A stretch of DNA of 49,788 nt, from contig JAJZMY010000005.1 of NCBI GenBank assembly GCA_021848125.1, forward strand, positions 1-49,788. The letters are read 5' to 3'. The DNA comes from Microcaldota archaeon (GTDB taxonomy: Archaea; Micrarchaeota; Micrarchaeia; Micrarchaeales; Micrarchaeaceae). The notes below the pieces were generated by a model. The model was not told the DNA's origin. It did no database searches and saw only the letters and a list, made by a program, of their open reading frames with translations. Shown piece by piece: positions 38,806-40,787 of the stretch; the first letter of the stretch is position 1; the number at the start of each line of letters is the position of its first letter. The position numbers and the translations under genes were made by a program.

Positions 38806-39231
38806 CTATGCAAGAAGCTGCCCCACTTCCTTTATAAATTCAGTAACATCTGCTGTGTTGTATGCTTGTTTGAAAGACTCTTCTTCATAGCTAGAATTGG
38901 CATACGCATGTATTAACAAATTCCTCAAAGTTCTCCTTTCCTTTATTTTATTTATGCTCTTTTTGCTAAGCTTGCCGCTCAGGCTCTCTATTAATGAGAG
39001 ATCGTCACCGCTAAGCTTGAGTTCAAGGCCTTTGTATAAAAGAGCCAGAATATCAAGTTCTACGTCGCTTACTAGCTGGAGGTTTCTCTCAATTGCGCTT
39101 TTAAGTATAATATCGGTGTTTTTGTAGGAATCAGAATCACTAGGCACAATTGAGCTAAGCCGCTTTGAATAAATCTTAAGATCAGATAGCTTTTCTTTTA
39201 TTCGCTCTTTATCAAGCATTTCCTTCGCCAC
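38806..39231 (-). CDS. hepT: HepT-like HEPN ribonuclease toxin (DUF86)
   Basis: The 141-aa all-helical HEPN protein has the catalytic RX4HXY motif (R103, H108, Y110 in RNLLIHAY). HepT is an RNase toxin held inactive by its MNT partner, which adds AMP groups to the tyrosine. The start overlaps the antitoxin frame by 20 bases. Start is GTG 39231, or ATG 39219. Its composition is less AT-rich than the surrounding genes. Confidence 0.85.
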   Translation of the reverse strand: MAKEMLDKERIKEKLSDLKIYSKRLSSIVPSDSDSYKNTDIILKSAIERNLQLVSDVELDILALLYKGLELKLSGDDLSLIESLSGKLSKKSINKIKERRTLRNLLIHAYANSSYEEESFKQAYNTADVTEFIKEVGQLLA

Positions 39232-39727
39232 TTAAAATATTTAACCTATAACTATAATTAGACCATTTTTCTGCTATCTGTATGCTATAGTCATACAATT
39301 TATTTTTATCGTTTAGGAAAATAATCTTAGCTTCATTAAGCACACGCGTCTGTACATTCAAAGGAAGATCATTGAGTATTGAGATATCGAATTTAATATC
39401 ATCTTCTATTGTTGAATATTTGTTAAGCTCATCGAAGGATTTAATTTCATTGTCAATCAAAATTGCAATATCTATATCTCTGTAATTCTTTTCCCTTCTA
39501 GCATAACTACCAAATAATAGAATGGCAATGACATGTCTGTCTTTCTCAGCGATTTTTATTATTCCCTGTATCTTATTCTTTATTGCATGTTGTGTGTTCA
39601 ACCATTGGATTATTGCTTCTTCTACGGCGCTACTTATTGACCCTCTGCCGTAGCCAAACCGCTCCATTGCAAGCGCCCTAAGCTTTGCGTCGACCTCGTC
39701 TGCAATGTAAATCTTCGTTTCTGCCAT
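39212..39727 (-). CDS. mntA: MntA-like nucleotidyltransferase antitoxin with N-terminal RHH domain
   Basis: The 171-aa protein has residues 3-45 resembling a ribbon-helix-helix DNA-binding domain (TKIYIADEVDAKLRALAMERFG, then SSAVEEAIIQWL). A minimal nucleotidyltransferase domain follows with LLFGSYARREKNYRDIDIAI: GS at 73/74 and the metal Asp pair at 84/86. MntA AMPylates HepT. The fused DNA-binding domain would let the antitoxin repress its own promoter, and an 18-bp palindrome covers its TATA box. It is the first gene of the pair and overlaps hepT. Confidence 0.85.
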   Translation of the reverse strand: MAETKIYIADEVDAKLRALAMERFGYGRGSISSAVEEAIIQWLNTQHAIKNKIQGIIKIAEKDRHVIAILLFGSYARREKNYRDIDIAILIDNEIKSFDELNKYSTIEDDIKFDISILNDLPLNVQTRVLNEAKIIFLNDKNKLYDYSIQIAEKWSNYSYRLNILSGEGNA

Positions 39728-39744
39728 ATTAATATCTTTAGGGA

Positions 39745-39762
39745 TAAAGGTATTTATACCTT
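39745..39762 (-). promoter_or_regulatory. Operator palindrome over the mntA TATA box
   Basis: AAAGGTAT-TT-ATACCTTT is an 18-bp inverted repeat with perfect 8-bp arms. On the minus strand it contains GGTATAAATACC, a TATA box about 25-30 bases upstream of ATG 39727, suiting a nearly leaderless transcript. Binding of the antitoxin's RHH domain here would block TBP. Confidence 0.6.
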
Positions 39763-40021
39763 TTTATTAACTATATTTAAGGTGTATGAAAATGAGGTAA
39801 TAAATGGTGAAATGACTAAAAAACAAAAGAAAATATGCAAGATTTAAATCTAGTAGTACCTAAAAATCGGGAATTTAGGATTTTAATAGCTTCATTTCTT
39901 AATAATAAAAGCATATAAATATATTTTTAATTATTAAAATAAATAATATAAAATAATATACTTTTTTTATATTTTTATATTTTATTTCATAATTATATTT
40001 ATAATAATAGCAAGTGATGAA
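39763..40021. other. Gap before S8e with short remnant frame
   Basis: Mostly AT-rich. On the plus strand a 27-codon frame from ATG 39835 to 39918 (beginning MQDLNLVVPKNREFR) could be the broken front of a gene, as it reads like a real N-terminus and stops abruptly. No repeat of the tRNA-Gly 3' end is seen. Confidence 0.3.
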
Positions 40022-40421: not shown

Positions 40422-40787
40422 ATGGCTATTAGAGTTTATGAATGTGATGAATCAGAAATTGAAGAATTAAAAAAATTATTAAACTATGACCCATATACAG
40501 ATAAAGGCATTGATATTAACAATATAAAAAATGACAAATACAATGATGTTATATTTAAAAGGCAAGAATATGAAATAAAAAACGGTTCAATGATTTCATT
40601 GCCAAGTTCAAGATATTTTTTATATTTAAAGGCAAATGAAGATTTTTTAAAAAAAGCAGAAGAACTTTTCAAAGAAAAATTCAAAACAGTAAAAAGAACG
40701 GATAAAGATATTGAAGAAAAAATAATAAAATATATTAATGATGAGGAATCAAAAGCAAATCAGGGTTTTGGCGCAATTTTTGGATAA
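40422..40787 (+). CDS. Small acidic/basic protein ending in a stalk-like GFGAIFG tail
   Basis: I do not know this 121-aa family. The body is charged and helical. The C-terminus reads ESKANQGFGAIFG, which resembles the factor-binding end of ribosomal stalk protein P1 (SGLAGLFG in this window). That P1 tail docks on EF-2, ABCE1 and other GTPases. The gene follows S8e by four bases, so it is expressed with ribosomal protein. A ribosome- or factor-linked role is inferred from tail and context. Confidence 0.7.
   Translation: MAIRVYECDESEIEELKKLLNYDPYTDKGIDINNIKNDKYNDVIFKRQEYEIKNGSMISLPSSRYFLYLKANEDFLKKAEELFKEKFKTVKRTDKDIEEKIIKYINDEESKANQGFGAIFG

What the first reader, a model, noticed from the sequence alone, without database searches (positions are those of the whole stretch)
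39212..39762. RHH-MntA fusion with an 18-bp operator on its TATA box
The HepT/MntA antitoxin is usually only a nucleotidyltransferase. Here an RHH-like domain is fused in front, and a perfect-arm palindrome covers GGTATAAATACC, the likely TATA box. One protein could AMPylate the toxin and repress the operon.
Basis: partly seen in the sequence, partly recalled or inferred. Interest (0 to 1): 0.6.

Follow-up and report, generated by a model that had tools for sequence, protein, structure and literature searches.

The report
Toxin-disarming enzyme with built-in repressor
In a tiny archaeon, the enzyme that is predicted to disarm a self-made RNA-cutting toxin carries an extra DNA-grip domain, and the promoter of its own operon holds a conserved row of evenly spaced short sites that this domain very probably reads, so one protein likely both switches off the toxin and regulates its own genes.

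Summary
The window lies in a Micrarchaeota genome. MntA (39212-39727, -) has an intact nucleotidyltransferase domain and is followed by HepT with RX4HXY. Its residues 1-48 are a ribbon-helix-helix (RHH)-like domain related to VapB-type antitoxins that sit beside PIN toxins. The same fusion, with HepT behind it, occurs in about 16 of 301 Micrarchaeota genomes and in 5 of 390 genomes of the phylum of a Thermoplasmata MAG.

The 18-bp palindrome is not unusual by itself, since AT-rich DNA gives many. It is half of a larger operator: four 6-bp sites (ATNYCT, either orientation) at an exact 8-bp phase, covering the TATA box to the start codon. Across 21 fusion genes, 66 sites were found (12 expected), 40 pairs lie exactly 8 bp apart (0.1 expected), and 17 genes have three sites in a row. 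Slot 3 flips to its exact reverse complement in some lineages. Twelve MntA-like genes without the domain show no such array.

Best reading: an RHH-armed, self-repressing AMPylating antitoxin with a MetJ- or omega-like operator. Binding and AMPylation are inferred, not shown. Autorepression by an MntA without an RHH domain is already published.

The parts
39212..39727 (-). mntA: RHH-MNT fusion antitoxin gene, 171 aa
   Evidence: ORF; Pfam Polbeta 1.6e-15 and NTP_transf_2 5.6e-6; NCBIfam MntA_antitoxin E 4.5e-13 (49 bits, below the 60-bit cutoff); Foldseek top matches are MntA-HepT and HEPN-MNT crystal structures
39584..39727 (-). RHH-like N-terminal domain (residues 1-48); K5 and Y7 of the presumed DNA-contacting strand invariant
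   Evidence: alignment; profile finds standalone RHH antitoxin-like ORFs; Pfam RHH_6; helices 10-24 and 33-61
39305..39565 (-). minimal nucleotidyltransferase (MNT) domain, residues 55-141
39470..39511 (-). catalytic GS-X9-DXD motif (residues 73-86, GSYARREKNYRDID); one residue shorter than the published GSX10DXD
   Evidence: sequence; invariant (G73, S74, D84, D86)
38806..39219 (-). hepT toxin gene (likely start ATG 39219, as in homologs; the ORF list gives a GTG start at 39231); overlaps mntA
   Evidence: Pfam HepT-like 3.6e-9; one search shows HepT directly downstream in every intact homolog
38902..38925 (-). RX4HXY motif of HepT (RNLLIHAY): RNase R and H plus the tyrosine that is AMPylated in known systems
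   Evidence: motif as defined in PMC7641770
39756..39761 (-). operator slot 1, AGGTAT (-34 to -29)
39740..39745 (-). operator slot 3, ATCCCT (-18 to -13); replaced by its reverse complement AGGGAT in several homologs
39732..39737 (-). operator slot 4, AGATAT (-10 to -5)
39746..39763 (.).
39751..39758 (-). putative TATA box TATAAATA (-31 to -24), placed as for a leaderless transcript
   Evidence: sequence; position inferred from general archaeal promoter knowledge

Best explanation
This is a chromosomal HepT-MntA (HEPN-MNT, type VII) toxin-antitoxin operon of a Micrarchaeota archaeon in which the antitoxin has acquired an N-terminal RHH DNA-binding domain from VapB-type antitoxins. Two MntA chains pair their N-terminal strands to make one RHH dimer. 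Dimers bind side by side on a four-site operator with 8-bp phase (sites ATNYCT, either orientation) that runs from the upstream edge of the TATA box to the start codon, so bound MntA, or MntA-HepT, excludes TBP/TFB and RNA polymerase. The MNT domain AMPylates the tyrosine of the HepT RX4HXY motif and silences the RNase. Shown here by sequence: the fusion, intact catalytic motifs, operon order, and the conserved phased array tied to this gene. Inferred: RHH dimerisation, binding, repression and AMPylation.
For: Domain calls. RHH assignment: A2 profile finds standalone ORFs at E down to 1.2e-13; one such relative matches Pfam RHH_6 at 1.7e-5 and 9 of 17 family members match RHH_6, mostly weakly; four standalone relatives lie directly before PIN toxin genes (Pfam PIN 9e-13 to 9.7e-16); AlphaFold helices 10-24 and 33-61 with an unpaired N-terminal strand; weak Foldseek hits include RHH proteins TraM and PrpA. 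Fusion recurs with HepT (RX4HXY) downstream. Operator: 66 sites vs 12.3 in shuffles, 40 pairs at 8 bp vs 0.1, 17 of 21 genes with three in a row vs a maximum of 1 in 2000 shuffle sets; motif-free test peaks at 8 and 16 bp, z about 12; identity 0.70 over -42 to -1 against 0.26 just upstream; slot 3 orientation changed at least twice on the protein tree; 12 MntA-like genes without RHH: 4 sites, no 8-bp pair; a pattern covering slots 2 and 3 hits 15 places in 301 genomes, 14 at these operons; exact CTTTATCCCTAAAG only once in the own genome. A distant RHH-PIN relative on a Halomarina plasmid has an 8-bp direct repeat AGGTACGT AGGTACGT before its gene. The N-terminal domain is more conserved (75% mean column identity) than the whole protein (59%).
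Against: No direct match of the window's own N-terminus to Pfam RHH passes a cut-off (RHH_6 E 0.054). The monomer model cannot show the ribbon, and PDB searches gave no significant RHH hit. The site regex was derived from these same sequences, which share ancestry, so shuffle statistics overstate independence. In some homologs slot 1 is lost. A TATA box is expected here anyway and explains part of slots 1 and 2. No expression or binding data exist.
Confidence: 0.76

Rival explanations
1. The upstream conservation is just a strong core promoter (BRE, TATA, initiator, leaderless start) with no repressor; the N-terminal domain serves only as a dimerisation or HepT-docking extension.
For: Slots 1 and 2 straddle a TATA-like TATAAATA at the position expected for a leaderless transcript; RHH-like domains in some antitoxins also help multimerise (general knowledge).
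Against: Core promoters do not require an exact 8-bp phase of one 6-mer in both orientations, nor reverse-complement replacement at slot 3. The array is absent from 12 MntA-like genes without the domain and the slot 2-3 pattern is almost confined to these operons in 301 genomes.
Confidence: 0.12
2. The RHH domain does bind the array, but the MNT domain no longer acts as an AMPylating antitoxin; neutralisation is by complex formation as in type II systems, or the pair is an ordinary regulatory module.
For: The motif is GSX9DXD (X8 in some homologs) instead of GSX10DXD; NCBIfam scores for MntA and HepT are below their equivalog cutoffs.
Against: G73, S74, D84 and D86 are invariant; HepT keeps the RX4HXY tyrosine in every intact homolog; closest folds are MntA-HepT structures.
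Confidence: 0.1
3. The array is the site of a separate trans-acting regulator (or of the MNT domain itself, as suggested for Shewanella SO_3165), not of the N-terminal domain.
For: SO_3165, an MntA without a recognisable DNA-binding domain, was reported to bind and repress its own promoter (PMC4621449).
Against: The array tracks the presence of the N-terminal domain across two phyla, not the MNT domain, and its core is not found elsewhere in the own genome.
Confidence: 0.08

Closest known systems
HepT-MntA (HEPN-MNT) type VII toxin-antitoxin system (Shewanella SO_3166-SO_3165, Aphanizomenon HEPN-MNT, Thermococcus cleftensis CL1)
   Same: Gene order antitoxin-toxin with overlap, MNT domain with GS...DXD, HepT with RX4HXY; structural matches 7ae9, 6m6u, 7bxo
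   Different: Known MntA proteins have no recognised DNA-binding domain; here an N-terminal RHH domain is fused and the promoter has a phased octad operator. GSX9DXD instead of GSX10DXD.
VapB-type RHH antitoxins (VapBC, RHH-PIN)
   Same: N-terminal domain is homologous to standalone RHH ORFs that precede PIN toxins in other Micrarchaeota and, weakly PIN-like, on a Halomarina plasmid
   Different: There the RHH carries a short toxin-binding tail; here it carries a whole enzyme and the toxin is HepT.
omega repressor (pSM19035) and MetJ operators
   Same: RHH dimers reading tandem short sites in direct or inverted orientation; omega2 binds 7-bp heptads in either orientation (PMC9499535, PMC4803016); MetJ met boxes are 8 bp (general knowledge)
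   Different: 8-bp phase with ATNYCT sites, in an archaeal leaderless core promoter; sequence relation to omega or MetJ not shown
paREP1 RHH-HEPN fusions of Pyrobaculum (Makarova 2009)
   Same: RHH joined to a component of the HEPN-MNT family (PMC2701414)
   Different: There RHH is on the HEPN side and the gene is not in an operon with MNT; here it is on the MNT antitoxin
AbiE (type IV) systems
   Same: An antitoxin with a DNA-binding domain represses through inverted repeats, with a nucleotidyltransferase in the pair (PMC7319586 abstract)
   Different: In AbiE the nucleotidyltransferase is the toxin and the DNA-binding domain is on the other protein

Membership tests
HepT-MntA (type VII) toxin-antitoxin | MNT-domain gene directly upstream of and overlapping a HEPN-domain gene | tested here: met
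HepT-MntA (type VII) toxin-antitoxin | HepT RX4HXY motif | tested here: met
   RNLLIHAY, and equivalents in all intact homologs
HepT-MntA (type VII) toxin-antitoxin | MntA GSX10DXD motif | tested here: inconclusive
   GS and DXD invariant but spacing is X9 (X8 in L009, L008)
HepT-MntA (type VII) toxin-antitoxin | NCBIfam equivalog cutoffs for MntA and HepT | tested here: not met
   49 and 30.7 bits against a 60-bit cutoff; Pfam Polbeta and HepT-like cutoffs are met. Filed as a divergent relative of the system, not as an equivalog.
HepT-MntA (type VII) toxin-antitoxin | AMP transfer to the HepT tyrosine and neutralisation of toxicity | not testable with these tools
   needs biochemistry
RHH (MetJ/Arc/CopG) superfamily | strand-helix-helix of about 45 residues with alternating strand and G-S turn between helices | tested here: inconclusive
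   helices 10-24 and 33-61 in AlphaFold and the sequence pattern TKIYIAD...GRGSIS fit; the strand itself is not formed in the monomer model
RHH (MetJ/Arc/CopG) superfamily | significant sequence match to an RHH family | tested here: inconclusive
   own sequence 0.054; homologs found by its profile match RHH_6 at 1.7e-5
RHH (MetJ/Arc/CopG) superfamily | intertwined dimer binding DNA through a two-stranded ribbon | not testable with these tools
   only monomer prediction available
MetJ/omega-type tandem operator | contiguous short sites at fixed phase, tolerant of orientation | tested here: met
   8-bp phase, slots 3 and 4 in both orientations

The most novel reading that the evidence does not exclude
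A single archaeal protein family couples enzymatic disarming of a toxin (AMPylation) with promoter occupancy on an orientation-tolerant 8-bp octad array over the TATA box, joined by one continuous helix from RHH to MNT, so that the amount or AMPylation state of HepT is read out directly as transcription of the operon; this would be an enzyme-antitoxin that is its own transcriptional sensor.
Probability: 0.3. Interest if true: 0.72.

Novelty: new variant of a known kind. Interest (0 to 1): 0.5.

Why it matters
HEPN-MNT is described as the most abundant toxin-antitoxin family in prokaryotes, yet how its operons are regulated is almost unstudied and its antitoxin usually lacks a DNA-binding domain; Makarova and colleagues (2009) even suggested that a DNA-binding component might be encoded elsewhere. 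Here that component is fused to the antitoxin and comes with a clear, testable operator. It also gives a rare sequence-defined repressor site in DPANN archaea and suggests that RHH domains move between VapB and MntA antitoxins.

Tried and rejected
Palindrome statistics in the window alone: not significant, so the argument was moved to conservation. Direct RHH proof by PDB profile searches and by Foldseek of the isolated domain: no significant hit, only weak matches including RHH proteins. Viral contigs and phages: no relatives, so no sign of a phage-borne form; plasmids: one standalone RHH relative only. Empty-site test with same-genus genomes: the S8e side is present in three genomes without the operon, but the other flank was not found near it, so a precise empty site could not be shown. 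TATA positions over the window's 64 ORFs gave only a weak peak at -32 to -25. The one off-operon hit of the array pattern (G015, L098) does not precede an ORF start and was set aside as chance. Paper searches found no described RHH-MntA fusion, but the library is incomplete.

Full report
What is there. The window lies in a Micrarchaeota genome (776 kb in 41 contigs; homologs in records titled Candidatus Micrarchaeota). On the minus strand, mntA (39212-39727) and hepT (38806 to about 39219) overlap. MntA residues 55-141 match Pfam Polbeta (1.6e-15) and NTP_transf_2 (5.6e-6); HepT matches Pfam HepT-like (3.6e-9) and has RNLLIHAY, the RX4HXY motif. Foldseek of the AlphaFold model puts MntA-HepT and HEPN-MNT crystal structures first. 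The catalytic motif is GSX9DXD rather than GSX10DXD, with the GS and DXD residues invariant in 14 aligned homologs. NCBIfam equivalog scores are below cutoff, so it is a divergent relative.

The N-terminal domain. Residues 1-48 (MAETKIYIADEVDAKLRALAMERFGYGRGSISSAVEEAIIQWL...) have the layout of a ribbon-helix-helix domain. The window's own sequence gives only marginal Pfam RHH matches (RHH_6 0.054), but a profile of 14 homologs finds standalone 45-120-residue ORFs in other Micrarchaeota at E down to 1.2e-13. One of these matches Pfam RHH_6 at 1.7e-5 and another at 6.9e-5, and four standalone relatives precede PIN-domain toxin genes. A relative on a Halomarina plasmid (E 3e-5, 42% identity) precedes a weakly PIN-like ORF. 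This is transitive evidence that the domain is an RHH domain of VapB-type antitoxins. AlphaFold gives helices 10-24 and 33-61, the second running on into the MNT domain, and leaves residues 1-9 extended, as expected when the partner strand of the dimer is missing (low confidence in residues 1-12). K5 and Y7 of the presumed DNA-facing strand are invariant. The first 50 residues are more conserved (75% mean column identity) than the whole protein (59%).

How common. The fusion is in 7 of 60 near relatives, about 16 of 301 genomes of the phylum and 5 of 390 genomes of the phylum of a Thermoplasmata MAG, in all intact cases examined followed by HepT with the motif. It was not found in viral contigs or phages. 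None of the three same-genus genomes has it. The patchy spread fits a mobile toxin-antitoxin module.

The operator. The 18-bp palindrome is real, but an 18-bp palindrome as such is unremarkable in this AT-rich DNA: 45 in the window, 26-49 in shuffles. Aligning 21 upstream regions shows what matters: AGGTAT-2-ATACCT-2-ATCCCT-2-AGATAT, four 6-bp sites at 8-bp phase, from -34 to -5 (39732-39761). Slot 3 is ATCCCT in some lineages and exactly AGGGAT, its reverse complement, in others; slot 4 is AGATAT, AGGGAT, ATCCCT, ATACCT or ATATCT. With the site written as ATNYCT in either orientation there are 66 sites in 21 x 50 bp against 12.3 in dinucleotide shuffles, 40 pairs exactly 8 bp apart against 0.1, and 17 of 21 genes have three in a row (at most 1 in any of 2000 shuffle sets). 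A test without any motif, counting near-identical 6-mers at each spacing, peaks at 8 and 16 bp (z about 12). Identity among same-register homologs is 0.70 over -42 to -1 and falls to 0.26 just upstream. The regex came from these sequences and they are related, so these numbers are upper bounds; the independent checks are the orientation changes (at least two for slot 3 on the protein tree), the negative control of 12 MntA-like genes without RHH (no 8-bp pair), and the phylum-wide pattern search (15 hits, 14 at these operons). In the own genome the exact slot 3 core CTTTATCCCTAAAG occurs once. The Halomarina RHH-PIN relative also has an 8-bp direct repeat before its gene (AGGTACGT twice).

How it most likely works. 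The TATA-like TATAAATA lies between slots 1 and 2, at -31 to -24 from the ATG, which fits a leaderless transcript; slots 3 and 4 reach the start codon. RHH dimers reading short sites in direct or inverted orientation at a fixed phase are known from the omega repressor (7-bp heptads) and from MetJ (8-bp met boxes, general knowledge). The likely mechanism is that MntA dimers fill the octads and block TBP/TFB and polymerase, while the MNT domain AMPylates HepT. Shown by sequence: fusion, motifs, operon, conserved array tied to the fusion. Inferred: dimerisation, binding, repression, AMPylation, any coupling between the two activities.

Against what is known. HepT-MntA systems AMPylate the toxin (PMC7641770). 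Shewanella SO_3165, an MntA without a recognised DNA-binding domain, was reported to bind and weakly repress (1.6-fold) its own promoter (PMC4621449), so self-repression is not new in principle. RHH-HEPN fusions exist in Pyrobaculum but not in MNT operons, and the same paper speculated about a DNA-binding component in trans (PMC2701414). No paper in the held library describes an RHH-MntA fusion or this operator, as far as the searches reached. It is a new variant of a known kind.

Noticed in passing
L104:1632-12280 (relative genome G012): A 1974-bp unit made of a pilin/LamG-like gene plus mntA and hepT is repeated four times in tandem, followed by three more pilin-like copies; L020 also has a pilin-like gene beside the TA pair.
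   Followed up: partly
L025:887-1204 and L039:1147-1644: Two homologs have an in-frame stop soon after the RHH domain (after residue 45 or 52). In L025 hepT is gone and MNT is cut short; in L039 the remaining MNT and hepT sequence is still there. The RHH part and the operator are kept in both; assembly error not excluded.
   Followed up: partly
L088:2001-2704 (Halomarina plasmid NZ_CP100459.1): Annotated as two hypothetical proteins: an RHH relative and a weakly PIN-like partner, with an 8-bp direct repeat AGGTACGT AGGTACGT upstream; looks like an unannotated VapBC-type pair.
   Followed up: partly
L068, L069, L070, L071, L072: The fused TA pair forms separate clades in genomes of the phylum of a Thermoplasmata MAG; possible exchange between Micrarchaeota and their Thermoplasmatales partners.
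   Followed up: no
L041-L048 upstream regions: Standalone RHH relatives with other strand residues (GRIDIV, GRMQIV, ARLDII) tend to have TGTG/CACA-type repeats or palindromes instead, suggesting that strand and site co-vary.
   Followed up: no
window 40422-40787 (+): Small ORF after ribosomal protein S8e, conserved in the genus with the same order (S8e, this ORF, MBL-fold protein); no clear Pfam match.
   Followed up: no
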